Assembly (NCBI RefSeq): GCF_013283855.1
Contig: NZ_CP054056.1
Span: forward strand, 1,240,001-1,304,000
Direction: 5' to 3'
DNA: 64,000 nucleotides
Source: Aquiluna borgnonia
Lineage (GTDB): Bacteria > Actinomycetota > Actinomycetes > Actinomycetales > Microbacteriaceae
Below the pieces are notes generated by a model. The model made no database searches. It saw only the letters and a list, made by a program, of their open reading frames with translations, and was not told the DNA's origin. How positions within the stretch are numbered: the first letter of the stretch is position 1; every line of letters starts with the position of its first letter. This document shows, piece by piece, positions 19,820-61,504 of this stretch. Position numbers and translations under genes: made by a program.

Positions 19820-20162
19820 GCTGAACGCTCACGGTTACGTCTGAAAAAACATGGTCTATCGGGGCCTGAGGCTTGTGCACGGTGATCTTGCAGAAGGTTA
19901 TTTTTGAATCCAGGGAAATCACCGCAGCCAGCAGGTGTTCTGCAAGGGTCTCAATCAAATCAAAAGTGTTTGATTTGGCACTCACGACCAGAAGATCTGC
20001 AACTGCTGCGTAAGAGACGGTCTGTGAAATCTGATCACCGGCCTCGGCCTCAAGCTGGTACTCAACGTCAATCAAAAACTTCTGACCGTAGGCACGCTCA
20101 TGCTCGAGCACCCCGTGGTAGGCAAAAACCTCAAGGCCGCTCAGCTGCAGGGTGTAGCGCAC
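19800..20162 (-). CDS. folB: Dihydroneopterin aldolase
   Basis: 120 aa. Converts dihydroneopterin to hydroxymethyl-dihydropterin plus glycolaldehyde. It has the family pattern LSGLEVFAYHGVLEHERAYGQKFLIDV, with catalytic E in HGVLEHE and the later lysine in ITVHKPQAPI. It sits between folP and folK, with its start overlapping the folP stop. Confidence 0.95.
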   Translation of the reverse strand: MRYTLQLSGLEVFAYHGVLEHERAYGQKFLIDVEYQLEAEAGDQISQTVSYAAVADLLVVSAKSNTFDLIETLAEHLLAAVISLDSKITFCKITVHKPQAPIDHVFSDVTVSVQHGRRED

Positions 20163-20986: not shown

Positions 20987-21534
20987 CGGCCGATCAGCCC
21001 CATTACCTCGGCACGCTGGACCGGATCAGAGAACTTTCCTCTGGTCGCCATGGTGATGGTATTGACCTCGGGCTGTCTGGCACCGCGACTAGCAACGCAC
21101 TGGTGACGAGCCTCGATAACCACTACAACGCCCTGGGCATCCAAGCCCTGCATCAAGGCATCGGCAACTTGGGCAGTCAGGTTCTCCTGGAGCTGGGGTC
21201 GAGAGGCAAGTATCTCAATGACGCTGGCTAACCGGCCAAGCCCGGCAACCTTCGCCGATGGCAGGTAGGCAATGTGAGCAAATCCAGTAAAAGGGAGCAG
21301 GTGGTGCTCGCAGATTGAGACCAGCTCGATGTCCTTGAGGATTACCGCCTCGTTGTGCTCCGCGGGAAAGAGTTCTCCCAGGGCATCGAGCGGATCTTTA
21401 CCGATTCCTTTGAAAAAGGACTGGTAGGCGTCGGCTACTTTGGAGGGGGTTGCAGAAAGCTCTGGGCGATCCGGATTCTCGCCGATAGCAATCAGCAGCT
21501 CGCGAACCGCAGCCTTTATCCGATCAGCTTGCAC
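20983..21534 (-). CDS. folE: GTP cyclohydrolase I
   Basis: 183 aa. Opens the folate pathway by turning GTP into dihydroneopterin triphosphate. Zinc and active-site signature: SICEHHLLPFTGFAHIAYLP, with QLQENLT and ARHQCVASRGARQ. I choose GTG 21534 ([14 protein letters not shown]) rather than the open-frame start at 21579: AAGGA lies 5 nt upstream, the overlap with ftsH becomes 11 bp instead of 56, and family members begin at this point. Confidence 0.93.
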   Translation of the reverse strand: MQADRIKAAVRELLIAIGENPDRPELSATPSKVADAYQSFFKGIGKDPLDALGELFPAEHNEAVILKDIELVSICEHHLLPFTGFAHIAYLPSAKVAGLGRLASVIEILASRPQLQENLTAQVADALMQGLDAQGVVVVIEARHQCVASRGARQPEVNTITMATRGKFSDPVQRAEVMGLIGR

Positions 21535-23500
21535 TTTCTTCCTTGGTCTCGGGCTTTGGCTCCTCTGGAAGAGCTTCAAGCTGCTTAACCTTGCGCCTTG
21601 GAACCGCGATTGGTCCCTTGGTGCTGAGGGTGCGCTTGGTGGAGGAACGCCAGGTGGTGCGATCTGGAAGCTTCTTAATCCCCTTGAAGATCTTGGCGAT
21701 TTCGTCTTGGTTCAGAGTCTCCTGCTCCAGGAGCGCTTTGGCCAAGCGGTCCAAGATCACTCGGTTGGAGGTTAGGGCCTTGTGGGCCTCATCGAGCGCC
21801 CCATCCAGGATGATTCGGACTTCGGCATCAACCTGCTGGGCTAACTCGTTGGAGTATTCGCGCTGCGAACCCAGGTCTCTTCCCAGGAATGGCTCGGAAG
21901 ATCCGCTCCCCAGCGAAATTGCCCCAACGCGCTGGCTCATGCCGTATTTGGTAACCATGGTGCGGGCGATGCTGGTGGCCTTCTCGAAGTCATTTGATGC
22001 ACCGGTGGTTGGGTCCTTGAAAACAATTTCCTCGGCGATTCGACCACCCATGGCATAGGCAATTTGATCCAGCAACTGGTTTCTGGTGATCGAGTAGCGA
22101 TCCTCCATTGGCATCACCATGGTGTAACCGAGGGCCCGACCTCTGGGGAGGATAGTGATTTTGGTTACCGGGTCCGAGTGGTTCAGGCTGCCGGCAACCA
22201 GGGCGTGGCCTGCCTCGTGGTAGGCGGTGATTAGGCGCTCGTGGTCCCGCATCAGGGTGGACTTCTTCTGAGGTCCGCCAATGACGCGATCAATGGCCTC
22301 ATCAATAATCTCGTTGTCGATCACCTTGCGGTTCAGTCGCGCTGCCAAAAGTGCAGCTTCGTTCAACACGTTGGCCAAGTCGGCTCCGGTGAAGCCGGGG
22401 GTTCTTCTGGCGACCAGCTCAAGATCGACATCCTCGGACAGCGGCTTGTTCTTGGCGTGAATCCCGAGGATCTGCTCCCTGCCCTTTAGATCCGGCGAGG
22501 ACACCCCGACCTGACGGTCAAAACGGCCTGGACGCAGCAGGGCTGGGTCGAGCACGTCCGGCCGGTTTGTAGCGGCAATCAGGATTACGTTGGTGTTGGT
22601 GTCAAAGCCGTCCATCTCAACCAATAGCTGGTTCAGGGTTTGCTCGCGCTCATCGTTTCCGCCACCGATGCCGGTACCGCGGTGGCGACCAACCGCGTCA
22701 ATTTCATCCACGAAAATGATTGCCGGGGCGGCCTGCTTGGCCTGGTCAAAAAGATCTCGAACCCTCGAAGCACCGACACCCACAAACATCTCCACAAAGT
22801 CCGATCCGGAGATAGAGAAAAATGGCACGCCGGCCTCGCCTGCGACAGCTTTGGCAACCAAAGTCTTACCGGTTCCTGGAGGGCCGTAGAGCAAAACTCC
22901 GCGAGGAATCTTCGCTCCCATCTCCTGGAACTTCTTTGGGTCCTTTAGGAAGTCCTTGATTTCAACAAGCTCCTCCATAGCCTCTTCGATGCCTGCGACA
23001 TCTTTGAAGGTGATGCTCGAAGTCTCCTTGGTGACCATCTTGGCTCTGGACTTACCGAAGTTCATGACCCCTCGGCCACCGCCACCCATTGATCCCATCA
23101 GGAACCAGAACAGCGCAACCAGAATGATGATCGGAAGCAGGGAACCGAGCAGGGCAACGTACCAGGGGGTGCGGACCACCTCATCGGTCCAACCGTCTTG
23201 AACAGGCGCTGCCGCAACTGCCTGAGCAACCGCGACCTCTCGACCCATGGCGTAGAAGAACTGAATGTGGTCACCGTATTCGGCATCCGCCTGGCTGAGC
23301 ACAACATCGACCCGCTGATCGCCGTCAAAGATTTTGACGGTCTTGGCCTTGCCGGTCTCAATCAGCTCGAGACCAACCTGGGTGTCAACCTTGGTGTACT
23401 GCTGGGCAGTCATCAACTGGCTACCAATCAGCATTACGGCAAGTGCCAACCCAATCCACAACCAGGGACCGCGCAAAAACTTTTTCATAGACGTCTTCAT
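21524..23500 (-). CDS. ftsH: ATP-dependent zinc metalloprotease FtsH
   Basis: 658 aa membrane AAA+ protease that degrades misfolded membrane and regulatory proteins. Two N-terminal transmembrane helices (about 14-31 and 113-136) flank a small periplasmic domain. Walker A is GPPGTGKT, Walker B is IIFVDEID, the SRH region is followed by the zinc site HEAGH, and there is a charged C-terminal tail ([13 protein letters not shown]). Start: ATG 23500, or ATG 23488 (MKKFLRGP). Upstream lies hpt, 26 bp away. Confidence 0.96.
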
Positions 23501-23526
23501 CTGAGGCTGATGCCCCTCTCTAATCT

Positions 23527-24072
23527 CTAGCTGTAGACGGCTGGGGACAGAATCCCAACGCCGTCCATTGACCGGTAGGACTCGTTGAAATCGAGTCCGT
23601 AACCGACAACAAACTCATTGGGGATATCAAACCCCACCCATCTGACAGCTATTTCAACCTTCGCCGCATCTGGCTTGCGCAGCAGCGTCACAATCTCTAC
23701 AGATGCTGCCCCACGGGCCTTGAGGTTGGCTGTGAGCCAGGAAAGCGTGAGGCCGGAGTCGATGATGTCTTCAACGATCAGCACATTGCGATCTTTGACA
23801 TCGGTGTCCAAGTCTTTGAGAATTCGAACCACGCCCGAGGAAACCGTCCCAGAACCGTAGGAGGAAACCGCCATCCAATCCTGCTTGGTCGGAATCTGCA
23901 TGGCCCTCGAGAGATCAGCCATGAACGGGACCGCACCCTTGAGAATTCCCACCAGCAAAACATCTTTGTCCGCGTAGAAAGCGTCAATTTTTGGAGCTAG
24001 CTCTTGAATCTTCTCCCGAATCTGCTCCGCGGTGACTAGAACTTCTTTGATGTCCGGGTGGTTGAGATGCAC
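23527..24072 (-). CDS. hpt: Hypoxanthine phosphoribosyltransferase
   Basis: 181 aa purine salvage enzyme. The PRPP-binding motif is VLIVEDIIDSGLTLSWL, the flexible loop region is SYGSGT, and the C-terminal pattern is IPNEFVVGYGLDFNESYR. GTG 24072 (HLNHPDIKEVLV follows) is preferred: it overlaps the tilS stop by 1 bp (TAGTG), and AGGAG lies 7 nt upstream. The open frame reaches 24177 but those codons are inside tilS. Order tilS-hpt-ftsH-fol is standard for the phylum. Confidence 0.95.
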   Translation of the reverse strand: MHLNHPDIKEVLVTAEQIREKIQELAPKIDAFYADKDVLLVGILKGAVPFMADLSRAMQIPTKQDWMAVSSYGSGTVSSGVVRILKDLDTDVKDRNVLIVEDIIDSGLTLSWLTANLKARGAASVEIVTLLRKPDAAKVEIAVRWVGFDIPNEFVVGYGLDFNESYRSMDGVGILSPAVYS

Positions 24073-25094
24073 TAGCAGGCTCCTGGGTTTTGGGGCTTGG
24101 TCTTGGTAAAGATCAGCTGGTCTTTTACCCGCTCTACTGTAATGCCAGATAGCGAGGCAGGTTTCTGCCCGTGCCAATTGGTGATCAGCTCCTCAACCTG
24201 CTGAATTTGGGCCTGGGTTGCTCCCCCCGCTCCGGCGGCGGTGGCGATTAGGTGAAGTGCCTTGGTTCGGACTGCGCGTGGAGCTTCCGCAAACTTCGAC
24301 ACTTGGTAAGCCACGCTCTTGGCCGTTGCAGAAAGCTTTGCCGAGGCAGTCAGTTCGCCTGCCAAGGCGGTTATAACCTCGTCAGCCTCTGCCGCCATGC
24401 CCGCGGTCCTCGCGAGCGCCGAGGCAAAGCCCGGCCCGAGCTCTTGCTCCAGCGTGGCAAGTAGGTTTCTGGCCCTAACTCGCAAAAACTTCGGGTCTTG
24501 ATTGTGCGGGTCCTCCCAAAAATTCAATCCCTGGTCTCGGCAGGCGGTTCTGAGGTCCGATCTAGATAGTCCTAAGAACGGTCTGAGCAGATTTCTAGCG
24601 GGATCGAAACTTTCCATACCGGAGATCGAAGTGAGGCCGGAACCCCTGGCCAACCCAAGCAGCACGGTCTCGGCCTGATCCTCAAGATTGTGCCCGGTTA
24701 GCACCGCGGCAGCCCCCTCCGAGATCCGGACGCGCTCAATGGCCTGATAGCGGGCAGCTCTGGCAGCAGCCTCCAAGCCCTCTCCGTTTGGTTTAACTTC
24801 AACCTTGACCACCAGAACCGGGTGCAATCCCAGCCCCTCACAAGTCAGCTTGGCCTGGTGGGCGATATCCTCAGATCCCGACTGAAGACCGTGATCCACA
24901 ATTACCGCACCGCCGGCAAGCCCCATGCGCGGCGCCTCAAACGCCAGAGCGGCTGCGAGAGCGACTGAATCCCCGCCGCCGGATACTGCCGCCAGAACCA
25001 ATTCACCCTTGTGAAGGTTCAGAATCTGCAGCGACTCTCGAACCGCACGCCGAGCGTCCGCCACCGCACTGGTGAGCCTTGGTCGCACTGGCAT
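24072..25094 (-). CDS. tilS: tRNA(Ile)-lysidine synthetase
   Basis: 340 aa PP-loop ATPase that modifies C34 of tRNA-Ile(CAU) to lysidine, needed to read AUA. The PP-loop motif SGGGDSVALAAAL (normally SGGxDS) is near residue 45. The TilS-characteristic HNLEDQAETVLLGLARGSG and NLLRPFLGLSRSDLRTACRDQGL follow. ATG 25094 is chosen; a TTG at 25121 is in frame. A dacB gene often precedes tilS in actinobacteria but is not here. Confidence 0.93.
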   Translation of the reverse strand: MPVRPRLTSAVADARRAVRESLQILNLHKGELVLAAVSGGGDSVALAAALAFEAPRMGLAGGAVIVDHGLQSGSEDIAHQAKLTCEGLGLHPVLVVKVEVKPNGEGLEAAARAARYQAIERVRISEGAAAVLTGHNLEDQAETVLLGLARGSGLTSISGMESFDPARNLLRPFLGLSRSDLRTACRDQGLNFWEDPHNQDPKFLRVRARNLLATLEQELGPGFASALARTAGMAAEADEVITALAGELTASAKLSATAKSVAYQVSKFAEAPRAVRTKALHLIATAAGAGGATQAQIQQVEELITNWHGQKPASLSGITVERVKDQLIFTKTKPQNPGAC

Positions 25095-38804: not shown

Positions 38805-40046
38805 ATGAAAGCCCCGACTGAATTGTCAGACACCAAGTTCTCCCCCTCGTTCCAGAAACTATGGACGGCGAGCGCCGCCAGCAACTTAGCCGATGGCCTG
38901 CTAAAAACAGCCGCTCCGCTATTGGCGACCACCCTCACCAAGGACCCGTTTCTAATCTCAACGCTGGCAGCGGTGATCATGCTGCCGTGGCTGTTTTTTG
39001 CCATTCCAATCGGTGGTTTGGTAGACCGAGTTAATCGCAGGCTCCTGCTCGCAGTTGCGAATTTGATTCGGCTGAGTGCTGCATCGATACTTGCCGTCAC
39101 AGTCGGTTATGACCTCATCACTTTCCCGATTTTGCTTTTGGCCACCCTGCTTTTTGGGATTGGTGAGGTGATGTATGACACCACGATCCAATCGATGACT
39201 CCGGAGGTTTTGGATAGGGATCAGCTGGACCGGGGCAACGCCAGACTCCAGGTCACCTCCGTTGCTCTGGGTGAATTCATCGGCACCCCACTGAGCGGTG
39301 TCCTATTTGCAGCTTCGATCGTGCTGCCCTTTGTATTTGGTGCCGGCGGAATCGTGCTGGCGGTCCTGATTGTTCTGCTGTTACCAAGCCACTACTCCTC
39401 AACCCCCAAGAGCACACAGCCCAAGGACAAGACTAAGTTCTGGGCAGACATCCGATTCGGCATCGGTTACCTCTACCAGGACAAGGTGCTGCTCAAGCTG
39501 GTGCTGCTAACCAGCTCCATCGGATTCTTTTTCTCTGCATCCAGTGCGACGATGGTGCTATTTCTCACCGAAACTTTGAAGCTCCCGATCGCCCTCTACG
39601 GAGTGATTTTTGCCATGCCAGCCGTTGGCACCCTGCTGGGATCTTTACTGGCTCCAAGACTGTCTGCCAAATTCGGCAGAACCAACGTCATGGCGCTGAG
39701 CATGCTGGTTTCTAGTTTTCTAGTGATTTTGCAGGGATTCTCACCGAACTACTGGGTGCTGGCTGGATTGGTTGGCCTTGGCCTAATGGCAATCACCTTC
39801 TGGAACATCCTGTTGATGTCCACCTACCACCAGATCATCCCGACTGAACCGTTTGGTCGAATTCACGGCACCCGCAGAACCTTGGTCTGGGGCTTGATGC
39901 CGATTGGCTCACTGCTTGGGGGAGCCATCGCAACCATTGACCTCAGAGCTCCGTTTTGGATCGGCGGCCTAGCCTGCACGGCACTCGCCCTCTACGGTTA
40001 CAACTTCATCCGAAACCTAAACACGACACTGGTGAATAAGGAGTAG
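38805..40046 (+). CDS. MFS transporter (EntS/MFS_3-like)
   Basis: 413 aa with about twelve helices. Motif A is GGLVDRVNRRLLLAVANL, in the MFS_3 group that includes siderophore and macrolide exporters. No siderophore genes are nearby, so the substrate is unknown. TAGGCT lies 14 nt upstream, giving a very short leader. The YciI-like gene follows 3 bp after the stop. Confidence 0.88.
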   Translation: MKAPTELSDTKFSPSFQKLWTASAASNLADGLLKTAAPLLATTLTKDPFLISTLAAVIMLPWLFFAIPIGGLVDRVNRRLLLAVANLIRLSAASILAVTVGYDLITFPILLLATLLFGIGEVMYDTTIQSMTPEVLDRDQLDRGNARLQVTSVALGEFIGTPLSGVLFAASIVLPFVFGAGGIVLAVLIVLLLPSHYSSTPKSTQPKDKTKFWADIRFGIGYLYQDKVLLKLVLLTSSIGFFFSASSATMVLFLTETLKLPIALYGVIFAMPAVGTLLGSLLAPRLSAKFGRTNVMALSMLVSSFLVILQGFSPNYWVLAGLVGLGLMAITFWNILLMSTYHQIIPTEPFGRIHGTRRTLVWGLMPIGSLLGGAIATIDLRAPFWIGGLACTALALYGYNFIRNLNTTLVNKE

Positions 40047-40049
40047 TTC

Positions 40050-40376
40050 ATGCGGTTTCTGCTCATGGTAATAGACACCACCTCCCCTTCAGCCTCTGGC
40101 GACGAGCTGGCTGCTATAGATGCCTTCAATCAGCAGCTGACCGATAACAACCAGCTACTTCTTGCCGTCGGCATCGCCGATCCCGGCAAAAGCTTGATAG
40201 TTGACGGTCGCCAAACACCGGCCTCTAGCGCGCAGGAGAGCCTATTCTCAGGGCCCGATTACCACAGTGGTTTCTGGTTCATAAGTGCGGAATCGGTTGA
40301 TGAGGCTCAAGAGTTAGCCAAACAGGGTTCTAAAGCTTGCAACCGCAAGGTTGAGCTAAGACCCCTGCTTGGCTAA
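40050..40376 (+). CDS. YciI-like/DGPF domain protein
   Basis: 108 aa ferredoxin-like fold of the YCII-related (DGPF) family: MRFLLMVI start, LLLAVGIADPGKSLIVDG, then SGFWFISAESVDEAQELAKQ. These small enzymes or binding proteins are often hypothetical; no catalytic role is assigned here. Three bp after the MFS gene, likely co-transcribed. Confidence 0.83.
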   Translation: MRFLLMVIDTTSPSASGDELAAIDAFNQQLTDNNQLLLAVGIADPGKSLIVDGRQTPASSAQESLFSGPDYHSGFWFISAESVDEAQELAKQGSKACNRKVELRPLLG

Positions 40377-40384
40377 TTAGTTCT

Positions 40385-40390
40385 TAGACT
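40385..40390 (+). promoter_or_regulatory. Leaderless -10 candidate, alpha-CTD-like gene
   Basis: TAGACT, 6 nt before ATG 40397. Confidence 0.5.
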
Positions 40391-40396
40391 TGGCCC

Positions 40397-40648
40397 ATGG
40401 TCAAGCCCCAACCAAGAAAGCGCTATGTCCAGTTGGACATGAGTCAATACGAGGGGCTTGATGACGAGTGGCGCCGGATTGGGCTTAGTGCCCCGGCTAG
40501 AAAAGCCCTGGTGGATGCCAAACTCTATAAAGTCTCGGACCTTAGGAAGATAACCCAATCCGAACTCATTGAGATGGATGGGATTTCCAAATCGGCAGTG
40601 GCGAGGATAAAGGTCATTATGGAGGCCAAGCGAATTAGCTTCCGCTAA
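40397..40648 (+). CDS. Small helix-hairpin-helix protein resembling RNA polymerase alpha-CTD
   Basis: 83 aa. Residues about 27-80 (IGLSAPARKALVDAKLYKVSDL, then KITQSELIEMDGISKSAVARIK) match the double HhH fold of RpoA C-terminal domains, which bind DNA and transcription factors. No other domain is present. It may bind DNA or RNA; the partner is unknown. Its terminator is also the host-side copy of the tRNA-Arg terminator at the island boundary. Confidence 0.8.
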   Translation: MVKPQPRKRYVQLDMSQYEGLDDEWRRIGLSAPARKALVDAKLYKVSDLRKITQSELIEMDGISKSAVARIKVIMEAKRISFR

Positions 40649-40657
40649 AAAATAAAA

Positions 40658-40688
40658 AACCCGAGAAGTTGTGAAGTCTTCTCGGGTT
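40658..40688. terminator. Intrinsic terminator at the left island boundary
   Basis: 11-bp stem AACCCGAGAAG / CTTCTCGGGTT with a 9-nt loop. It is followed by TT on the plus strand and an A-rich side for the minus strand. It serves the alpha-CTD-like gene now and presumably served tRNA-Arg before insertion. Confidence 0.85.
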
Positions 40689-40691
40689 TTG

Positions 40692-40734
40692 TGCGCTTGG
40701 AGGGACTCGAACCCCCAACCTTCTGATCCGTAGT
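40692..40734 (-). pseudogene. Truncated tRNA-Arg 3' remnant
   Basis: Identical to the last 43 nt of tRNA-Arg(ACG) at 44525-44567, from the anticodon loop to the discriminator base. The 5' half is missing. It marks the displaced original 3' end after island insertion. Confidence 0.85.
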
Positions 40735-40912
40735 TATGTTGCAATGCCTCTATATGTAGAGGAAGTGGCAATGTACCCCAGTATTTTATTAGTCAAGCCA
40801 CCCTTTGCAGATGTGTCCATTCATGACCGTTTCCGCCCATTGAACGGAATGTGAACGGAAGGCATCATTAGCCCGACCGGCTCAGAAGTTGAACCTGCAA
40901 AAGGATCTTGGG
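40735..40912. other. Island left-end non-coding segment with repeats
   Basis: No open frame. It holds a hairpin CCTCTA/TAGAGG (40747-40762) and a tandem TGAACGGAA (40841-40849 and 40852-40860, period 11 bp). These might be arm-type integrase sites or remains of the recombination module; no integrase fragment is readable. Confidence 0.45.
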
Positions 40913-41551
40913 CTAAACCGCAAATAAGTACGGGAATCGAAAAACAATGATGACGATGATCAGCGCAAAGTTAGCAATGATTAGCGGCAGCAAATAAGGC
41001 ATGAGCGCGAGGCCAATCGTACGAGTTGCGCCAATGCCCCACTGGCCGTTGGCGAGTGTTAGTGCTCCTGTAGTCCACCAAATGGGTATCGCTGCTGCCC
41101 ACACCACCAGGCAATAGGGGCACAGAACGCCTATCACGAAGGTGCTCTGCACAAACAACCAAGTGACAAACGCCCACGATCCAAAAAACCCAAGCACAAG
41201 CAATCGCCAGAACCACGGCGCGAACTTTGCACCGGCTAGCACTCCAAGTCCCACTATCACTGGGACCATGAAGCCAGCCACTCCAATCACGGGATTTGGG
41301 AAACCGAGGAGCGAGGCTTGCCATCGATCAAATAGCGCTCCGCAGGAAACGAAGGGGCTGATGTCGCAAGCCAACTCCGATTGGGGATTCTGCAGAGACC
41401 GAATCCGCTCAATCAACAGTGCGGTAGATGAAAGCCAACCGATTGATCCTGCAATAACGAGCAAAAACGACAGAGGTCGCCAGGTCTGCGAGCCAAGCTT
41501 GGCATCAACCATCTGTGAATTCTTGTCCGCCACCATAACTAACCTACGCAT
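40913..41551 (-). CDS. Vitamin K epoxide reductase (VKOR) family protein
   Basis: 212 aa, five or so membrane helices. Redox cysteines: loop pair C62 and C70 (ACDISPFVSC) and the quinone-side CPYC (C144, C147). Bacterial VKOR reoxidises DsbA-type oxidases using quinone, in place of DsbB. The divergent DsbA-like gene 149 bp away is the likely partner. The start could be ATG 41551, ATG 41536, or GTG 41533, which has TAGGTT 7 nt upstream. It lies inside the tRNA-Arg island. Confidence 0.9.
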   Translation of the reverse strand: MRRLVMVADKNSQMVDAKLGSQTWRPLSFLLVIAGSIGWLSSTALLIERIRSLQNPQSELACDISPFVSCGALFDRWQASLLGFPNPVIGVAGFMVPVIVGLGVLAGAKFAPWFWRLLVLGFFGSWAFVTWLFVQSTFVIGVLCPYCLVVWAAAIPIWWTTGALTLANGQWGIGATRTIGLALMPYLLPLIIANFALIIVIIVFRFPYLFAV

Positions 41552-41700
41552 CCATACCTAACCGACTCAGCTCTATGCTACGTCTCCAGAGTCAAGTCAC
41601 CGGCCAGGGTTATCATTAGCTGTCGATAATGCAGCCGAGGTGGTTGTTGACGCTGTTTTGTAACTCCATCGATAGCTTTCAAACCAAGAAAGGTTGCTCT

Positions 41701-42369
41701 GTGAAAGGTGCAAACTTAAAAGTCTCCCTAATCCTGACGGGAATAGTAATCGTCGCGGCCCTAGCGGCGGTCATCGCTGCTCTAGCACCAAAGCCAACAC
41801 CGTCTGAATCTGCTGAAGTTGGAAATGGCTCTCCGAACTCCTCGGTGATTCGACCAGACACTCACATCCTCGATGACGCCGGAGAGGGGGCCGTAACCCT
41901 GGTTGAGTTCCTTGATTTTGAATGTGAAGCATGCGGAGCTTTCTACCCAATCGTCGAGCAGCTTCGCGAGGATTTCGCAGGCGAAGTGACCTTTGCCTTC
42001 CGTTATTTTCCTCTACCGGGTCACGTGAACTCGACGACGGCCGCGCTGGCCGTAGAAGCGGCTGCACAGCAGGGCAAGCTAGAGGAGATGTTTGCGCGCA
42101 TGTACGAGACCCAAGCTGAATGGGGTGAATCTCAGGACTCGAAGGCGGGTTTGTTTCGCCAATACGCTGAAGAGCTTGGCCTAAACCTCGAGCAGTACGA
42201 CGCTGCTGTTGCTGCGCCCGAGACCTTGGAACGAGTCAAGTCTGACTTCGACGATGGCATCGCGAACGGAGTGCAATCGACCCCAACCTTCTTTCTGAAT
42301 AATCGACCAGTAGAGCTAACCTCCTTTGATGACCTCAGGTTGGCAATAGAGGCCGAGTTGCAACGATGA
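41701..42369 (+). CDS. DsbA-family thiol:disulfide oxidoreductase
   Basis: 222 aa. The N-terminal membrane anchor (residues 7-29) is followed by a DsbA/thioredoxin_4 domain with active site CEAC (C75, C78) and cis-proline in QSTPTFFLNN. It probably forms disulfides in exported proteins, reoxidised by the neighbouring VKOR. GTG 41701 is chosen from AGAAAGG 7 nt upstream; the open frame from 41629 is leader. It lies inside the island. Confidence 0.9.
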   Translation: MKGANLKVSLILTGIVIVAALAAVIAALAPKPTPSESAEVGNGSPNSSVIRPDTHILDDAGEGAVTLVEFLDFECEACGAFYPIVEQLREDFAGEVTFAFRYFPLPGHVNSTTAALAVEAAAQQGKLEEMFARMYETQAEWGESQDSKAGLFRQYAEELGLNLEQYDAAVAAPETLERVKSDFDDGIANGVQSTPTFFLNNRPVELTSFDDLRLAIEAELQR

Positions 42370-42375
42370 CCCCCG

Positions 42376-42741
42376 ATGAATAAGTCAACGCGCGGACACC
42401 AAGCTGCAAAGTTACGAAGAATGGCACTTGCACCCGCAGTACTTGGTGCGATTGCCGTCTACTTCGGACTATCGACAGTAGGAAAACAAGAGTTTTATCT
42501 CGTCAGTTTCGTTATCTGTTTGCTCGGGCTCATCGTAGGGTGGTACACAATTCAGTCCCGCCAATGGTGGTGGCTCACAATTCCAGTGGCGATCGCCTTG
42601 GTTTGGAACCCGATTTTTCCCTTCGCTCTAACGGCGGAGGTCTGGTTGATACTGCATTACTTGGCTACTCTAGGTTTCGCAACGGCTGGTTTTGTTATCC
42701 GCGTGCCGGCGCAAGATCAGACCCAAGAAATTCGACGATAG
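42376..42741 (+). CDS. Small membrane protein (DUF6804-like), unknown function
   Basis: 121 aa with three or four hydrophobic segments (about residues 17-33, 40-58, 66-82 and 88-108). The WWWLTIPVAIALVWNPIFPF stretch recalls small DUF6804-type membrane proteins, but I am not certain of the family. It starts 6 bp after the DsbA-like gene, so co-transcription is likely and a link to disulfide formation is possible. Confidence 0.7.
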   Translation: MNKSTRGHQAAKLRRMALAPAVLGAIAVYFGLSTVGKQEFYLVSFVICLLGLIVGWYTIQSRQWWWLTIPVAIALVWNPIFPFALTAEVWLILHYLATLGFATAGFVIRVPAQDQTQEIRR

Positions 42742-42834
42742 TTTTAGGCAGAGCTTGAAAACCTTGTGCCGAGATCTGAGCGAGTTCTGCACTCGGTGCC
42801 CGAGGAACGAAACAGCGGCAGAAAGACCGCTTCG

Positions 42835-43746
42835 CTAGTGCATTTCGTGGGTGTCCAGCGCAGCCGCTGGCTCTAATTGGAATGTTGAGTGAGAAATTGC
42901 GACTGAGAAGTGCTCAGCAACACAGCGCTGCAGAGCAAGAGTTATCTCAGCGGCATGCCCGTCATGGAAGCATTCGGGCTCGACCACGACATGTGCGGTG
43001 AGTACCGGCAGCCCCGTCGCTATCTGCGTAATGTGCAGGTCGTGCACGTCGAGAACATGGTCCTCGTCAAGCAGGTGCTGTCGCACATCGTTGAGGTCAA
43101 TGCCTCTTGGCACTGCCTCGAGCAAAACTTCGACAGAATCGTGCAGCAAGCGCAAGGTGCGCGGAATGATGAGCAACCCAACGACCAACGCCGCGATGGA
43201 GTCAGCCTGTTGAAATCCTGTCAACATGATGGTGATTGCCGCCGCGATTACTGCCATAGATCCGAGCGCATCACTGAGCACCTCCAGGAATGCGGCTCTC
43301 ATGTTGAGGTTGTCGCTCCGGCCACCAGAAAGCACGATAATTGCGACAATATTGGCCACCAGGCCGACCAAACCGAAAACAAGCAGCTCTGGTCCCGTAA
43401 TCTCGGCCGGTTGACTGAGGCGTTGCAGGGCCTCGACTGCAACGAAAACACCAACACCCAGTAACACTGCGGCCTGCATAGTGGAACCTAGAACCTCGGC
43501 CCTTCGAAGTCCCCAGGTGCGACGTGCTGTAGCGGGCCTCCGCATTAGCTGAGCCGCGAAGAGGGCAACCAGAAGACCGGCGGCATCGGTGAGCATGTGG
43601 GCCGCATCCACAAGCAGGGCGAGAGATCCCGTAATAATCGTTCCGATTAATTCAGCTACTAGAACACTGGCAGTGATTGTGAATGCGATGGCCAGTCTCC
43701 TACGATTCACGGTCCCTGTGGCGTGCTCGTGGTCTCCCGCGCTCAT
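42835..43746 (-). CDS. Cation diffusion facilitator (Zn/Cd/Co exporter)
   Basis: 303 aa, six transmembrane helices plus a C-terminal cytoplasmic ferredoxin-like domain (about 210-300). The TM2 metal site is H50 and D54 in DAAHMLTD. The TM5 site is EVLSDALGS, with glutamate where ZitB/CzcD usually has histidine. A His-containing N-terminus (GDHEHATG) and C-terminus (DTHEMH) flank it. The likely role is proton-driven export of zinc, cadmium or cobalt. ATG start with AAGGAAG upstream. No regulator gene sits next to it. Confidence 0.92.
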   Translation of the reverse strand: MSAGDHEHATGTVNRRRLAIAFTITASVLVAELIGTIITGSLALLVDAAHMLTDAAGLLVALFAAQLMRRPATARRTWGLRRAEVLGSTMQAAVLLGVGVFVAVEALQRLSQPAEITGPELLVFGLVGLVANIVAIIVLSGGRSDNLNMRAAFLEVLSDALGSMAVIAAAITIMLTGFQQADSIAALVVGLLIIPRTLRLLHDSVEVLLEAVPRGIDLNDVRQHLLDEDHVLDVHDLHITQIATGLPVLTAHVVVEPECFHDGHAAEITLALQRCVAEHFSVAISHSTFQLEPAAALDTHEMH

Positions 43747-43983
43747 TCGCTCTTCCTTTCTCGGCAGTGACTACCATAAGCCCGGCGACTCGCTCAGCAT
43801 GCGAACATCTCAATTTTCAGGTCATTTTTAAGTCTAAGACAAATTTAACTAGCGGTTTCCCTGAAGAGTTAGCTCCATAGTTAGAAGCCACGCTGTTCTC
43901 TTTGGGTGCTGATGAAAATTGTCTTGAACGCATTTAGAGCTTCGCATCACCTCCCCATTTTGACTCTGTTGCTATTGCTTTAG
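43747..43983. other. AT-rich gap upstream of the CDF gene with a small palindrome
   Basis: No convincing gene. GTCT-A-AGAC (43832-43840), in a TTTAAGTCTAAGACAAATTTAA context, could be an operator for a metal-responsive regulator. The lower GC suggests foreign DNA. Confidence 0.3.
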
Positions 43984-44439
43984 CTAGGTGCGTATGCAGC
44001 TTTTAGCGCTCAAATACCAGTTGGCAAATTGCTCAGGTTCAAATAGTGATACTGCCCAAGCACGGGTTTCGAGATCGGCTTTTTCCAGCGCGGTAAACCT
44101 GACGCAAGACTTTCCCATATCCAAGCGCTTGCAAATCTTGGTCCATCGCTTCTGGAATTCGGCTGTCAGCTGCTCAGACGCATAGATTGCGGATAGATAA
44201 AAGGAGATGTGGTTCTTCTGGCTCGCTAGCGCAAGTGCGGCGAAAGGCTGGTCGTTATGTGTTGGTCCAGAGACCTCGAGTGGAACCTGAAAAACAATCA
44301 TTCCCCAGGCCATGGTTTCAATAAAACCTGCCGGCAGATTGTCTCGAATTAGTTCCAAATGCTGAGTTATCTCAGATCTTCTGGGGTCTGCAAGTTCGAC
44401 CAGATACTGCTCCACCGTTGCAGCGTGAGACGAGACCAT
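43984..44439 (-). CDS. DUF1801 domain protein
   Basis: 151 aa, single DUF1801 (YdhG-like) domain: VEQYLVELADPRRSEITQHLELIRDNLPAGFIETMAWGMIVFQ, then FAALALASQKNHISFYLSAIY and the family's IRFTALEKAD-like strand (CVRFTALEKADLE). Function unknown. ATG 44439 follows GGAGGG; the open frame from 44484 would cross the repeat boundary. It lies at the right end of the island. Confidence 0.87.
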   Translation of the reverse strand: MVSSHAATVEQYLVELADPRRSEITQHLELIRDNLPAGFIETMAWGMIVFQVPLEVSGPTHNDQPFAALALASQKNHISFYLSAIYASEQLTAEFQKRWTKICKRLDMGKSCVRFTALEKADLETRAWAVSLFEPEQFANWYLSAKSCIRT

Positions 44440-44482
44440 AACCCTCCGACTTCGAAGGAAGCTCCAGCTAGCAAATGGGCAC

Positions 44483-44567
44483 AAATAAAAAACCCGAGAA
44501 GTTGTGAAGGCTTCTCGGGTTCAGTGCGCTTGGAGGGACTCGAACCCCCAACCTTCTGATCCGTAGT
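44483..44567. repeat. Right boundary repeat (attR-like)
   Basis: 85 bp partner of 40650-40734; here it completes the functional tRNA-Arg gene and its terminator. Confidence 0.85.
44491..44521. terminator. tRNA-Arg terminator (right copy)
   Basis: 11-bp stem AACCCGAGAAG / CTTCTCGGGTT with a 9-nt loop; A-rich flank gives the T-tract on the minus strand. Confidence 0.85.
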
Positions 44568-44597
44568 CAGATGCTCTATCCGTTGAGCTACAAACGC
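44525..44597 (-). tRNA. tRNA-Arg (anticodon ACG), island attachment gene
   Basis: 73 nt. Acceptor GCGTTTG/CAAGCGC with discriminator A, anticodon stem TCTGA/TCAGA around CTACGGA, T-loop TTCGAGT. The 3' 43 nt belong to the duplicated boundary repeat. It is the A34 (inosine) arginine tRNA reading CGU, CGC and CGA. Confidence 0.97.
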
Positions 44598-44652: not shown

Positions 44653-45558
44653 TTACTGGTCCGGGCTGAGCTTGAAGTTGAAGATACTCGAATCAAAATC
44701 GTTGTAGCCCTCGTAATCCAAAAGCTCGTAAAGCCTTGACCTAGTTTGCATATTGCCAACTTCAGACTCCAGTGTCCCGTGCGACCTGAGCGAATCAAGC
44801 GCTCTCTCAGCCGCACCCATGGCTGCCCGAAGCAGTGATACTGGATAGATCACAAGGTTCACGCCAACATCATGCAATTGCTGCTTGGTGTATAGCTGGC
44901 CCTTTCCAAACTCAGTCATGTTGGCCAATATCGGTAGCGAGGTAGCGGCCCTTACCGCCTCAAACTCATCGAGACTCATTAGGGCCTCAGGGAAAATAGC
45001 GTCTGCCCCAGCGTCCTCCAGGGCTCGAATTCGATCCAGAGTTGCAGGCAGACCCTCCACCGCTCTGATGTCGGTCCTGGCCATGATCACAAAGTTGGAA
45101 TCCCTCCTCGCCCTTGCCGCAGATGCGATTCGCTGGGTAGCCGTGTGCTCATCCACCACCGCTTTACCGTCAAGGTGACCGCAGCGCTTGGGGTTGACCT
45201 GATCTTCAATGTGAATTCCGGCAACTCCAGCATCCTCAAATTCCTGGATGGTTCTGGCCAGATTCAGCATCTCTCCAAATCCAGTGTCGGCATCGGCCAG
45301 AACCGGAACATCGACCAGGCGAGCAATTTGTTTAGCTCGGAGTGACATTTCGCTGAGCGTTGTAAGTCCGATATCCGGAAGTCCAAGGTCAGCGGAAGTC
45401 ACGGCGCCCGAGACATAAACCCCGTCAAAGCCTTTGTCTTGAATCAGCTTTGCTGAGACTCCATTGAAAGCGCCCGGAAATTGAAGTGTCTTACCGGAGG
45501 CGAGCGCTGCGCGAAAATCAGCGCGTTTTTGCTGTGCGGGGACAGCGGAGTAGAGCAT
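44653..45558 (-). CDS. prpB: Methylisocitrate lyase
   Basis: 301 aa ICL/PEP-mutase superfamily TIM barrel. It cleaves 2-methylisocitrate to pyruvate and succinate. FPGAFNGVSAKLIQDKGFDGVYVSG, DADTGFGE (Mg site) and the active-site loop PKRCGH (catalytic Cys; the R is typical of methylisocitrate rather than isocitrate lyase) are present. Last gene of the tctCBA-MFS-prpD-prpB run, with its first base overlapping the prpD stop. Confidence 0.92.
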   Translation of the reverse strand: MLYSAVPAQQKRADFRAALASGKTLQFPGAFNGVSAKLIQDKGFDGVYVSGAVTSADLGLPDIGLTTLSEMSLRAKQIARLVDVPVLADADTGFGEMLNLARTIQEFEDAGVAGIHIEDQVNPKRCGHLDGKAVVDEHTATQRIASAARARRDSNFVIMARTDIRAVEGLPATLDRIRALEDAGADAIFPEALMSLDEFEAVRAATSLPILANMTEFGKGQLYTKQQLHDVGVNLVIYPVSLLRAAMGAAERALDSLRSHGTLESEVGNMQTRSRLYELLDYEGYNDFDSSIFNFKLSPDQ

Positions 45559-57368: not shown

Positions 57369-58994
57369 ATGCACCAGAGAGCCGGTTTGCTTGCCCATGA
57401 AAGCGACCTAGTTGATCTAGAGAAACTAACTTCCAGCTACTTCGACGTCTCCCCGGACGTTGCTATTGCAGAACAGCGAGTTGCGTTTGGAACATCTGGC
57501 CACCGTGGGAGCTCGCTCAACGGCTCGTTCAACGAGAACCATATTCTGGCTATCACTCAGGCGATTGTGGAATATCGAACTGCTCAGGGTTTCAACGGTC
57601 CAATTTATGTCGGCCGTGACACCCACGCACTGAGCGAACCAGCTCAGCAGAGCGTTCTTGAGGTTCTTGCCGGCAACGGACTAGTTGCTCTGATTGACAG
57701 TAACGACCGCTACACCCCAACTCCAGCAATTTCGGTAGCCATCATCGATCACAACGGTCAACTCCCCCGCGGCAGTGATGCGGTGGCGGATGGCATTGTG
57801 ATCACCCCCAGCCACAATCCACCCCAGGATGGCGGCATCAAATACAACCCCCCACACGGTGGGCCAGCGGACTCCGATGCCACAAACTGGATCGCAAAGC
57901 GGGCCAACGAAATCATTTCCAACGGCATGCAGGCCGTGAAGCGAGCAACGCCAAATGCCCGAAAGTTCGACTTCCTAAATAACTACGTTTCCCAACTTGA
58001 CCAGGTGCTCAAGCTCGACTCAATTCGCAATGCCGATGTTCGAATTGGAGCCGATCCAATGGGCGGAGCATCGGTTGACTACTGGGGTGCCATTGCAGAT
58101 CGATTTAGGCTAAACCTTCAGGTGATAAACCCTAACGTCGACTATCGGTTCGGCTTCATGACACTGGACTGGGATGGCAAGATCCGCATGGACTGCTCCT
58201 CACCGCATGCCATGGCCTCACTAATTGATAACAAATCAAGCTTTGACATCTCTACTGGCAATGACGCAGACGCAGATCGGCACGGCATTGTCACGGCAGA
58301 CTCCGGACTTATGAATCCAAACCACTTTCTTGCCGCCTCAATTCACTACCTCTTCGGTGAGCGAGACGGCTGGGATGAAAACGCTGCGGTGGGTAAGACC
58401 ATGGTGTCCTCTTCAATTATTGACAAGGTGGTTTCGAGCCTGGGTCGCAAGTTGATTGAGGTTCCGGTTGGGTTCAAATGGTTCGTCTCTGGCCTCTCCG
58501 ACGGTTCAATTGGCTTTGGCGGCGAAGAATCCGCTGGGGCCTCTTTCCTGAGGCGCAACGGTCAAGCTTGGTCAACTGACAAAGACGGATTGATAATGTG
58601 CCTGCTGGCTGCAGAGATTGAAGCGGTAACCTCAAAGAGCCCCTCGGAGCTTTACGCCGACCTAACCCGCATTCACGGTGAACCGAGCTATCGAAGAGTT
58701 GATGCCCCGGCCACCTTGGAACAAAAATCGACGCTCAGCAAACTTTCCGCCAATGAAGTTTCCGCCACGACGTTGGCTGGGGAGTCGATAAGCAACATCG
58801 AAACCCATGCAAGTTCCGGTGGGGCACTGGGCGGAGTAAAGGTCTCTACACAGAACGCCTGGTTTGCCGCCCGGCCCTCTGGAACTGAAAATGTCTACAA
58901 GATTTACGGAGAGTCGTTCAAGGGTGATCAGCACCTAGAGCAGGTTTTGGCCGAGGCTCAATCGCTGGTTGATTCCGTTATCTCTTCAAGATAA
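57369..58994 (+). CDS. pgm: Phosphoglucomutase, alpha-D-glucose specific
   Basis: 541 aa, interconverts glucose-1-phosphate and glucose-6-phosphate. FGTSGHRGSSL near residue 40, the phosphoserine loop TPSHNPPQDGGIKYNPPHGGP, the metal loop GNDADADRHG, the sugar loop GGEESAGASF and the C-terminal RPSGTENVYKI are all intact. ATG start with AAGGGG upstream. The last 37 bp overlap the convergent VanY-like gene. Confidence 0.95.
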   Translation: MHQRAGLLAHESDLVDLEKLTSSYFDVSPDVAIAEQRVAFGTSGHRGSSLNGSFNENHILAITQAIVEYRTAQGFNGPIYVGRDTHALSEPAQQSVLEVLAGNGLVALIDSNDRYTPTPAISVAIIDHNGQLPRGSDAVADGIVITPSHNPPQDGGIKYNPPHGGPADSDATNWIAKRANEIISNGMQAVKRATPNARKFDFLNNYVSQLDQVLKLDSIRNADVRIGADPMGGASVDYWGAIADRFRLNLQVINPNVDYRFGFMTLDWDGKIRMDCSSPHAMASLIDNKSSFDISTGNDADADRHGIVTADSGLMNPNHFLAASIHYLFGERDGWDENAAVGKTMVSSSIIDKVVSSLGRKLIEVPVGFKWFVSGLSDGSIGFGGEESAGASFLRRNGQAWSTDKDGLIMCLLAAEIEAVTSKSPSELYADLTRIHGEPSYRRVDAPATLEQKSTLSKLSANEVSATTLAGESISNIETHASSGGALGGVKVSTQNAWFAARPSGTENVYKIYGESFKGDQHLEQVLAEAQSLVDSVISSR

Positions 58995-59794
58995 AACTCC
59001 GCCGCGGGTAAATCCCAAAACTCCTCAAAGGTTTGTATTCCATTTTTGGCATAAAGGGCAGCAATCTCTTTTCCCACAAACCGGAGGTGCCAAGGCTCGT
59101 AGGTGTAACCGGTAATTGAAGTGGTGTCCTCTTCGTAGCGGATGATGAACCCGTGTTTCCAGGAGTTCTCTGCCAGCCACTTACCGGCATCGGTATCCCC
59201 GAAGCACTGCATGATTGCGCATCCCTGAGCGGGGACTGAAACGTCAACTGCCAGACCGGTTTGATGCTCTGAGTGACCTGCCTTGGCGCTTCGCACCAAG
59301 GCCCCTGCCAATCCATACTGCTCAGTCTTCGAGACAAAAAGTTCGCTCTGGTATTCGTAGGAGCGGTAGGCGGAATTCACAAACAGCTGCCCGACACCTT
59401 GAGCGTGCATCTCGGTGGCCAAGTTCTCAAGTGCTGTGGCGGCATGGTCACTCAGCTCAAGTCCACGAGAATTGTCGAGACTCTTGGAGGACTGCACCGC
59501 TCGCAAATTGGCGGGTTCATAGTCGATTGGATTCAGCGGACGCTGTTTGTTGACCACCACCCACTCGCTAGATGCGAAGTTCGTTGCCAGTTTCACAAAG
59601 TCGAACTCGTTGATGTCTGGAGATTGGGCTGACTCAGATCGACTTTCTAAATCGGTGATGGCGCCTCGAATGATTTCATGGGTCGGATCAAAGGCCTGAG
59701 GCTGCAGGACAAGTGCCATTCCAAGTCCGGCTAAGACAACCGGTGGTCCGAACACGAACCAGGGATTGCGAAGCAGAGGTCTAGACTGAGGCAC
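58958..59794 (-). CDS. VanY/M15-type D-alanyl-D-alanine carboxypeptidase
   Basis: 278 aa. One transmembrane anchor (about residues 11-31) is followed by an M15B peptidase domain (about 110-265). VNSAYRSYEYQSELF, the zinc motif AGHSEHQTGLAVDVS and the second site YEPWHLRFVG are present. It trims the terminal D-Ala of peptidoglycan stem peptides. GTG start 6 nt after TAGGGT. Convergent with pgm, with a 37-bp overlap. Confidence 0.92.
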   Translation of the reverse strand: MPQSRPLLRNPWFVFGPPVVLAGLGMALVLQPQAFDPTHEIIRGAITDLESRSESAQSPDINEFDFVKLATNFASSEWVVVNKQRPLNPIDYEPANLRAVQSSKSLDNSRGLELSDHAATALENLATEMHAQGVGQLFVNSAYRSYEYQSELFVSKTEQYGLAGALVRSAKAGHSEHQTGLAVDVSVPAQGCAIMQCFGDTDAGKWLAENSWKHGFIIRYEEDTTSITGYTYEPWHLRFVGKEIAALYAKNGIQTFEEFWDLPAAEFYLEEITESTSD

Positions 59795-59800
59795 GTATAA

Positions 59801-59806
59801 ACCCTA
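59801..59806 (-). promoter_or_regulatory. Leaderless -10 candidate, VanY-like gene
   Basis: TAGGGT on the minus strand, 6 nt before GTG 59794. Confidence 0.5.
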
Positions 59807-59821
59807 GAACTTGGAGACCCG

Positions 59822-61504
59822 TTGGCGTCTAACACAAGGCGGGAAGCCGCAAAACAGGCCGCTCAATCTGGCCAAATGTCACCCAGAGAAATTTGGTTGG
59901 TCCTAGTTGGGCTCATGTCCGGGATGTTCCTGGCGGCCCTGGACCAGTCTGTGGTGGGCGCCGCAATGAGAACAATTGCTGATGATTTAGATGGACTTTC
60001 AGTCCAGGCGTGGGCCACGACCGCATACCTAATTACCTCAACAGTCTCAACCCCAATCTACGGAAAGCTCGGGGACCTCTTCGGGAGAAGGCCGCTCTTC
60101 CTGGCCGCAATCGCAATTTTCATAATTGGTTCGGTAACCACCGGGTTCGCCAATGACATGTATCAACTAGCTGCATATCGCGCGATTCAGGGGCTTGGTG
60201 CCGGCGGGTTGTTCTCACTCGCTCTAACCATCGTTGCGGACATTGTTCCGCCTCGTGAAAGAGCTCGCTACCAGGGCATGTTCTTGGCCGTATTTGGCTC
60301 ATCTTCTCTGCTTGGGCCAGTAGTAGGCGGGACCTTTGCGGGAATCGATCAGATTCTCTGGATCGACGGCTGGCGCTGGGTATTCCTGATTAACCTTCCA
60401 ATCGGAATTGCCTCACTGATCATGGTGACCACCTTCTTGCACGTCCCGCACACCCCAAAGCAGCAGAAAATTGACTGGTGGGGTGCCGTCACGATCGTGG
60501 TTGGAGTTGTTCCAATTCTCCTGGTTGCGGAGCAGGGACGAGAGTGGGGCTGGGGCTCCCCGCTCTCCGTTGCTATGTATGTCACCGGAGTAGTTGGAAT
60601 CGTGAGCTTCATCCTGGTTGAAAAGCGAATGGGTGAATCAGCTCTGATTCCTCTTTCAATCTTCAAGAATCAGACTTTTGCCAGGACCCAGGTGCTGGGC
60701 GTAATTATTGGTGCCGGCATGTTTGGCGGCATGATCGTGCTGCCATTGATCATTCAAATCATCTACGGCATCACACCAACTATGACCGGTTTGATGATGC
60801 TTCCGATGGTGCTGGGAATGATGACCGCAACCATTACCGCCGGTCGGATAACTTCAAAGACTGGAAAGTACCGAATCTTCTTCAACACCGGAACGGCGAC
60901 TCTTTTCACTGGCTACACCTTCATGGTCTTGGTGCTCGCAGCTGATACACCGCTGTGGTTGCTCGCTATCGGCATGGTGCTGATTGGACTTGGTCTGGGT
61001 CAGCTAATGCAGACCACAATGGTTGCAAGCCAGAACGCAGTGGAGGCCAAAGACATTGGAGTGGCAACCTCTTCGGCCACCTTCTTCAGGCAAATGGGTG
61101 GAACCTTTGGAGTCGCCATCTTTATGTCGATCCTGTTCTCTCAGGTGGTCGACAAAATAACTCAGGCCTTCCAGGACACCGAGGTTCAGGCTGGGCTAGC
61201 CGAAGCGTTGGCCAATGGCAACGTCACTTCGGATCCTGCCAACGCCGGAATTCTTGAAGTGTTGAACTCTGGACCCAGCGGAGCAAACGGCATCACCAGT
61301 GATAGCTCATTCCTAATTGGAGCGGATGAGAGGCTAACCCTGCCGTTCCGAATTGGATTTGTTGAAAGTTCTCTGACCGTATTCATGCTCGCAGCCAGCT
61401 TCATAGCGGTTGCCTTTGTCATCAGTTGGTTCATCAAGGAAATCCCGCTTCGGCAGAAGAGTGCCTCACAGGAAGCGGCCGAAGCCGCTGCTGCCGGGCA
61501 CTAG
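59822..61504 (+). CDS. DHA2-family MFS multidrug exporter
   Basis: 560 aa, 14 predicted helices, EmrB/QacA drug exporter type. Motif D1-like LDQSVVGAAMRTI, motif A GKLGDLFGRRPLFL, and motif C GSSSLLGPVVGGTFAG. TTG start with GGAG 5 nt upstream. Distinct from the DHA2 pump at 28521. Substrate unknown; the downstream TPP riboswitch belongs to the next operon. Confidence 0.9.
   Translation: MASNTRREAAKQAAQSGQMSPREIWLVLVGLMSGMFLAALDQSVVGAAMRTIADDLDGLSVQAWATTAYLITSTVSTPIYGKLGDLFGRRPLFLAAIAIFIIGSVTTGFANDMYQLAAYRAIQGLGAGGLFSLALTIVADIVPPRERARYQGMFLAVFGSSSLLGPVVGGTFAGIDQILWIDGWRWVFLINLPIGIASLIMVTTFLHVPHTPKQQKIDWWGAVTIVVGVVPILLVAEQGREWGWGSPLSVAMYVTGVVGIVSFILVEKRMGESALIPLSIFKNQTFARTQVLGVIIGAGMFGGMIVLPLIIQIIYGITPTMTGLMMLPMVLGMMTATITAGRITSKTGKYRIFFNTGTATLFTGYTFMVLVLAADTPLWLLAIGMVLIGLGLGQLMQTTMVASQNAVEAKDIGVATSSATFFRQMGGTFGVAIFMSILFSQVVDKITQAFQDTEVQAGLAEALANGNVTSDPANAGILEVLNSGPSGANGITSDSSFLIGADERLTLPFRIGFVESSLTVFMLAASFIAVAFVISWFIKEIPLRQKSASQEAAEAAAAGH

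What the first reader, a model, noticed from the sequence alone, without database searches (positions are those of the whole stretch)
40650..44567. Compact redox/metal genomic island in tRNA-Arg(ACG) without a visible integrase
Seen: an 85-bp direct repeat with three mismatches brackets 3.8 kb. The right copy completes tRNA-Arg; the left copy is a 43-nt 3' remnant still attached to its terminator. Known: tyrosine integrases insert elements at tRNA 3' ends and leave exactly this pattern. Inferred: the cargo (VKOR, DsbA-like, membrane protein, CDF exporter, DUF1801) is an accessory disulfide-formation and metal-export module. It is either stranded after integrase loss or moved in trans. Including the terminator in the duplicated unit is a tidy detail that keeps both the tRNA and the neighbouring gene terminated.
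Basis: partly seen in the sequence, partly recalled or inferred. Interest (0 to 1): 0.8.

Follow-up and report, generated by a model that had tools for sequence, protein, structure and literature searches.

The report
Half of a tRNA-inserted mobile island
A small block of redox and metal-export genes sits beside a transfer-RNA gene because a mobile element once inserted there; the half that carried the inserting enzyme seems to be gone, while related water bacteria still carry the more complete element.

Summary
The repeat and the tRNA-Arg(ACG) remnant are real, and the insertion reading holds. The window island belongs to a family. Its first ~126 bp form a non-coding arm that recurs with other cargo at this tRNA in two genera of small-genome Microbacteriaceae, and once at tRNA-Tyr. 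L065 has the same VKOR-DsbA-DUF6804-CDF cargo and arm plus what the window lacks: a 417-aa tyrosine integrase and a second arm repeat at the tRNA end. A homologous island in G009 has empty sites in relatives. Of 12 islands seen end to end, 4 have the integrase and the second arm repeat; 8 have neither. Three of the four integrase islands end in one shared terminator of their own; the window's right copy has the host type. So the terminator is not part of the attachment core, and the window holds the left half of such an element joined to a native tRNA end. It is probably immobile alone, but an intact element docking beside it could carry it off; a tandem (G451) and a fused island (G460) sharing 6.4 kb at 99.8% fit this. 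How the right end was exchanged is inferred.

The parts
40397..40648 (+). alpha-CTD-like 83-aa gene, left flank
   Evidence: PF03118 E 0.005, below cut-off; also next to a remnant in G013 and G222
40650..40690 (.). host-type terminator, left copy
   Evidence: type judged by eye
40691..40734 (-). 44-nt 3' remnant of tRNA-Arg(ACG), left attachment core
   Evidence: same end point before the arm in the 14 other sites aligned (G222 and the second G451 site have variant cores; G019 keeps only a short core)
40735..40860 (.). conserved terminal arm of the element (attachment-site arm, inferred)
40842..40859 (+). arm-type repeat, the only match to GAACGGAATNTRAACGGA in the window at up to 2 mismatches
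   Evidence: 0.01 expected by chance
40913..41551 (-). VKOR family membrane protein
   Evidence: 69% identical to L065, 71% to G009
41629..42369 (+). DsbA-like thioredoxin (CEAC motif read by eye)
   Evidence: 77% identical to L065, 74% to G009
42376..42741 (+). DUF6804 membrane protein
   Evidence: 51% identical to L065, 55% to G009
42835..43746 (-). CDF cation-efflux transporter; DNA similarity to L065 ends at its 5' end
43984..44484 (-). DUF1801 gene (start uncertain; ATG at 44439 likely)
   Evidence: no counterpart in the L065 or G009 islands
44483..44523 (.). host-type terminator, right copy
   Evidence: type judged by eye
44524..44597 (-). complete tRNA-Arg(ACG); repeat ends at 44567
   Evidence: G009 against G021 for the same crossover
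44653..45558 (-). prpB, right flank

Best explanation
The island began as an insertion by a tyrosine integrase of the 417-aa family seen in L065 and G112. The integrase recombined the anticodon-loop side of tRNA-Arg(ACG) with a circle carrying an arm on each side of a core of about 44 nt (end points and arms shown; integrase activity inferred). From the left this gave: host terminator and tRNA 3' half, left arm, VKOR-DsbA-DUF6804-CDF cargo, a primase module, the integrase, the right arm, and a restored tRNA, as L065 shows. Later the right half, from behind the CDF gene through the integrase and right arm, was lost, and a native 'DUF1801 - host terminator - tRNA-Arg' end took its place. Plain deletion through the right end would remove the tRNA, so this step probably used a second native copy of the locus, by homologous recombination with a related chromosome or from a duplicated tRNA-Arg (inferred). 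The remaining cassette lacks an integrase and one arm, so it should not move alone. It keeps the outer arm, so a new integrase element inserting into the tRNA beside it could take both out together (inferred from G451 and G460). The cargo is read as a disulfide-forming pair plus a metal exporter (from domains, untested).
For: Repeat and tRNA anatomy. The arm is 82-86% identical over ~126 nt among the islands of G000, G001, G009 and G017; over nine arms the differences fall evenly on codon positions (196/195/200, 36 pairs), so it is a DNA site, not a gene. L065 has arm, VKOR, DsbA, DUF6804, CDF in the window's order plus the integrase. Integrase and right arm repeat go together: 4 of 4 against 0 of 7 bounded islands (Fisher p 0.003); a twelfth, G457, has neither. 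Host-type right terminator in G000, G001, G017, G031, the G451 cassette and the armless island of G013; one shared element type in L065, G112, G460. Empty site: G021 against G009, 98.7% left, 91.5% right, 44-nt overlap; G010 and G020 show the same left junction and a short right flank (123 and 97 nt). G451 and G460 share 6420 bp at 99.84%. G000 has no relative of the integrase at E 1e-60.
Against: No relative lacking this very island was found, and no clean empty site at alpha-CTD. No integrase remnant is detectable in the window island. The integrase-bearing element of G451 lacks the left arm repeat and its right end is off the contig, so two arms are not universal. G222 has no integrase but a right terminator like that of G450, so terminator type does not follow integrase absence in every case. 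Five arm islands plus G013 end in a host-type right terminator; repeated one-sided exchange is less simple than one shared mechanism I may have missed. The source of DUF1801 is unresolved (20 of 398 genomes; in G008 it lies about 1 Mb from tRNA-Arg, in G006 on another contig). L065 belongs to a metagenome bin that may be mixed, and its contig ends inside the tRNA. Binding of the arm by the integrase is not tested.
Confidence: 0.74

Rival explanations
1. The island is a complete non-autonomous element that an integrase elsewhere excises and moves in trans, with the terminator as part of its right end.
For: Islands without integrase outnumber those with it, 8 to 4, among 12 bounded islands. The arms of G009 and G031, in two genera, match at 126 of 127.
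Against: None of the 8 has the right arm repeat. G000 has no such integrase. In G000, G001, G017 and G031 the left and right terminators look like one host lineage, and G017's two copies share a tRNA variant absent from the other copies printed, which argues against import of the right end from a distant source.
Confidence: 0.12
2. A segmental duplication of the tRNA 3' end and terminator by ordinary recombination, with no integrase involved.
For: The repeat covers the terminator, beyond the tRNA core; the window has no integrase.
Against: The remnant is followed at the same base by the same arm in islands of two genera, some with an integrase; the empty and filled sites of G021 and G009 differ by exactly such an insertion.
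Confidence: 0.04
3. One ancient insertion in a common ancestor, inherited vertically, with the cargo later replaced.
For: The same site and arm recur in 5 of 22 genomes of the genus.
Against: Patchy distribution: at least 90 bp of arm in 5 of 22 and 8 of 67 genomes; the G009 arm is closer to G031 of another genus than to the arms of its own genus; a 6.4-kb cassette is 99.8% identical in two species; filled and empty sites occur in close relatives.
Confidence: 0.07

Closest known systems
tRNA-targeting tyrosine-integrase genomic islands (catalogued by Islander, PMC4383910; start of abstract seen in the listing)
   Same: Restored tRNA at one end and displaced 3' fragment at the other.
   Different: The window island has no integrase and only one arm; the duplicated terminator is not part of the core.
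CIME, cis-mobilizable element, and accretion (PMC5704250 and PMC7563491, passages read)
   Same: Element without recombination genes that keeps an attachment end; in G451 such a cassette stands in tandem with an integrase element, the more decayed one further from the tRNA end.
   Different: CIMEs are defined there as decayed ICEs or IMEs that keep their attachment sites. Here the intact relatives show primase/helicase genes and no recognised conjugation gene, and one end lacks the arm repeat.
Tycheposons of Prochlorococcus, reported also in freshwater Methylophilaceae (PMC10872708, passages read)
   Same: tRNA-bordered cargo elements with a tyrosine recombinase in streamlined aquatic bacteria.
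   Different: Unrelated host; the original description was not read, so no gene-by-gene comparison was made.
Actinomycete integrative elements, AICEs (features recalled, no call)
   Same: Actinobacterial, tRNA-targeting, tyrosine integrase; some have a Prim-Pol replication gene (recalled).
   Different: No FtsK/TraB-type transfer gene among the L065 and G112 proteins scanned.

Membership tests
tRNA-targeting integrase island | Direct repeat of the tRNA 3' part with the full tRNA at one end | tested here: met
tRNA-targeting integrase island | Integrase gene inside the island | tested here: not met
   met in the relatives L065 and G112
tRNA-targeting integrase island | Empty site in relatives | tested here: inconclusive
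   Met for the homologous island of G009; not found for the window's own flanks
CIME | No recombination or conjugation genes of its own | tested here: met
CIME | Keeps attL and attR | tested here: inconclusive
   Both core copies are present and the left arm is present; the right arm repeat is absent, judged by motif only
CIME | Derived from an ICE or IME | tested here: not met
   No relaxase, FtsK or secretion gene in 11 L065 and 9 G112 proteins scanned with Pfam; many of these have no Pfam match, so divergent genes could be missed
CIME | Tandem accretion with an integrase element | tested here: not met
   Not in the window; seen in G451. An observed consequence more than a strict definition
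Tycheposon | tRNA border plus tyrosine recombinase plus cargo | tested here: inconclusive
   tRNA border and cargo in the window, recombinase only in relatives; definition taken from passages of PMC10872708
AICE | FtsK/TraB-type DNA transfer protein (recalled) | tested here: not met

The most novel reading that the evidence does not exclude
One-armed cassettes are a lasting class of hitchhiker in these streamlined aquatic actinobacteria: the right half with integrase and inner arm is repeatedly replaced by a native tRNA end, the outer arm is kept, and passing integrase elements dock in the tRNA, pick the cargo up in cis and fuse with it, as the G451 tandem and the fused G460 island suggest.
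Probability: 0.3. Interest if true: 0.7.

Novelty: new variant of a known kind. Interest (0 to 1): 0.5.

Why it matters
Islands without an integrase are often left unexplained. Here the missing half is found in relatives, the arm that marks the family is short and searchable, and the same anatomy recurs in two genera with different cargo (metal handling, restriction-modification, AbiE, haem and fatty-acid genes). That makes a testable system for how small-genome aquatic bacteria keep acquiring genes.

Tried and rejected
Looked for a serine recombinase as the mover: 1 of 22 genomes of the genus has PF00239 (G010), about 87 kb from its tRNA-Arg. Looked for the element in viruses: 0 matches for two arm patterns and no integrase relative in viral contigs. 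In the phage and plasmid collections all integrase matches are under 60% identity, and the ten listed of each are 25-31%. Considered the arm as a gene, since open frames of 57 and 63 aa overlap it in L065 and G451: rejected, substitutions are even over codon positions. Considered the terminator as part of the attachment core: rejected. Searched for DUF1801 as the native neighbour of tRNA-Arg: unresolved. Searched alpha-CTD for a clean empty site: none. Considered the G019 integrase, next to the same tRNA, as the cognate enzyme: it is a different one, with only partial matches of 24-28% identity to those of L065 and G112.

Limits. The PF00589 scan covered the 22 genomes of the genus and G112, G031, G222. 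G451, G460, G450 and G457 were searched with the L065 protein and by local comparison, and six ORFs of the G451 cassette with Pfam. L065's genome was not held. Terminator types were judged by eye. The family searches used a sample of 398 genomes of a larger group. The VKOR scan of genome contigs finds close relatives only.

Papers: PMC10872708, PMC5704250, PMC7563491 and PMC12422013 were seen as found passages only; all others as search listings. That this element family is undescribed rests on the searches and on PMC12422013 having 0 occurrences of 'integrase', 'genomic island' and 'mobile'; most subscription journals are not held.
Full report
OBSERVATION. The repeat is present as stated: 40650-40734 and 44483-44567, 82 of 85 identical. 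tRNA-Arg(ACG) is 44524-44597, minus strand. The tRNA part of the repeat is 44 nt, from position 31 at the anticodon loop to the 3' end; the rest is a strong terminator hairpin. No tyrosine integrase lies in the window.

SETTING. The window is part of a 1.36-Mb single-contig genome, G000. The contig of G009, a genome of the same genus, has the same length as JAIYCT010000002.1, titled Microbacteriaceae bacterium. Of 22 genomes of the genus, 20 have a match to the tRNA-Arg region. Of 22 fetched stretches with tRNA-Arg(ACG), 15 also hold tRNA-Ser(GCT); the gene content on the other side of the tRNA differs widely.

THE ARM. The first ~126 bp inside the left repeat are 82-86% identical among the islands of G000, G001, G009 and G017. 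Apart from G000 and G009, which share the VKOR module, these four show no other DNA match to each other in that call. With this arm, 5 of 22 genomes of the genus and 16 of 67 genomes of a second genus have a match at E 0.001. Matches of 90 bp or more number 6 sites in 5 genomes and 9 sites in 8 genomes; with L065 that is 16 sites in 14 records. In a sample of 398 family genomes, 13 had any match, and the 8 long ones came from 7 genomes of these two genera. Fifteen of the sites were aligned: the arm follows the core at the same base, though G222 and the second G451 site have variant cores and G019 keeps only a short core. Differences among nine arms fall evenly on codon positions (196/195/200, 36 pairs), so the arm behaves as a DNA site. 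The sixteenth, in G457, lies at tRNA-Tyr(GTA), with a 53-nt exact repeat and an island of about 4.8 kb.

THE INTEGRASE. L065, found by its VKOR, holds arm, VKOR, DsbA, DUF6804 and CDF in the window's order, then further genes including a Prim-Pol and a 417-aa tyrosine integrase before the tRNA, where the contig ends. G112 carries an 89% identical integrase with the same arm at its other end. With the L065 protein, 2 of 398 family genomes match at E 1e-60 (G112 at 89%, G066 at 34%) and 4 of 67 of the second genus at E 1e-40 (G112 89%, G451 90%, G450 50%, G460 45%). G000 does not match. These relatives carry Prim-Pol and AAA helicase genes. No conjugation gene was recognised in the L065 and G112 proteins scanned with Pfam, and no capsid gene in the ten proteins scanned with PHROGs. 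They look more like satellites or integrative plasmids than like ICEs (inference).

ONE-ARMED ISLANDS. Twelve islands are seen end to end: G000, G001, G009, G017, G031, G222, the G451 cassette and G457 (no integrase), and G112, L065, G460, G450 (integrase). The four other sites (G017 second site, G019, G436, the G451 integrase element) are not closed on both sides. An arm repeat GAACGGAATNTNAACGGA, allowing 2 mismatches, sits at position 108 from the left in all twelve. A second one, 61-101 nt from the right end, occurs in the 4 with integrase and in none of the other 7 tested (Fisher p 0.003); G457 also has none. Against the pattern, the G451 integrase element has no left arm repeat. Integrase absence rests on PF00589 for G000, G001, G009, G017, G031 and G222 and on the searches for G451 and G457. 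In the window the motif occurs once, at the left end.

TERMINATORS (typed by eye). Left copies mostly carry a terminator like that of single-copy relatives or of other left copies of the genus; G009, G222 and the G451 cassette differ. Right copies carry one shared element type (ATGACGCGG..CCGCGTCAT or close to it) in L065, G112 and G460, and another type in G450 and in G222, which has no integrase. They are host-type in G000, G001, G017, G031, the G451 cassette and the armless island of G013. G009 has an IS481-type transposase at its right end. G006 and G008, with one complete tRNA copy, carry the L065-type terminator, as if only a right end survived. So in the window the duplicated terminator most likely marks replacement of the element's right end by a native one. 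Simple deletion would remove the tRNA, so a second native copy was probably used (inference).

EMPTY SITE AND TRANSFER. G009 carries a 14.5-kb island with homologues of VKOR, DsbA, DUF6804 and CDF. G021 1-4019 matches G009 39913-43931 at 98.7%, and G021 3976-5562 matches G009 58408-60000 at 91.5%; the two overlap by 44 nt, the tRNA 3' half, so G021 is the empty site. G010 and G020 show the same left junction and a right flank of 123 and 97 nt. No clean empty site was found for the window's own flanks: of 18 genomes among 398 with the alpha-CTD gene, none has it directly against an intact tRNA-Arg within the fetched 1.5 kb; G004 has the tRNA about 1 kb away. In G451 an integrase-less cassette stands beside an integrase element; the same cassette, 99.84% over 6420 bp, is fused in G460 to a stretch 94% identical to L065 over 3648 bp, with another integrase (45%). 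The collection holds one genome per species, so these are two species. The arms of G009 and G031, in two genera, match at 126 of 127.

CARGO. DsbA with DsbB or VKOR is the bacterial disulfide-forming pair (PMC11208910, start of abstract in the listing). CDF proteins export metal ions. G009's island adds a heavy-metal ATPase, DUF305 and CtaG, in line with metal handling. Other arm islands carry type I restriction-modification (G112), AbiE (G017), beta-oxidation (G031) and haem (G222) genes. The function of the window cargo is inferred from domains.

VERDICT. A real and informative example of a known kind, in a recurrent one-armed form that I did not find described in the searches named. The main uncertainty is how the right end was replaced.

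Noticed in passing
G000:C1:60971-61006 (L053:10972-11007): 36-nt exact fragment of tRNA-Arg(ACG) spanning the anticodon loop, with no tRNA gene found there.
   Followed up: partly
G017:C1:126796-126974 (L063:8797-8975): tRNA core plus arm with no tRNA gene in the 18-kb stretch, next to type III restriction genes; no second end seen.
   Followed up: partly
G009, G010, G020 (L039-L048): A 30-kb block, 96-99% identical, with a complete tRNA-Arg(ACG) at each end in G010 and G020; no arm match.
   Followed up: partly
G457:C10 (L150, L151), oriented 19937-24733: The same arm at tRNA-Tyr(GTA), suggesting a switch of target tRNA.
   Followed up: yes
G019:C19:19-1347 (L059): A different tyrosine integrase directly beside the same tRNA-Arg; a second element family may use this site.
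   Followed up: partly
window 44653-45558: Among the stretches compared a prpB match lies beside tRNA-Arg only in G017, so this flank is itself variable.
   Followed up: no
G000:C1:1040726-1041178: A second DUF1801 gene in the genome, 40% identical to the island one.
   Followed up: no
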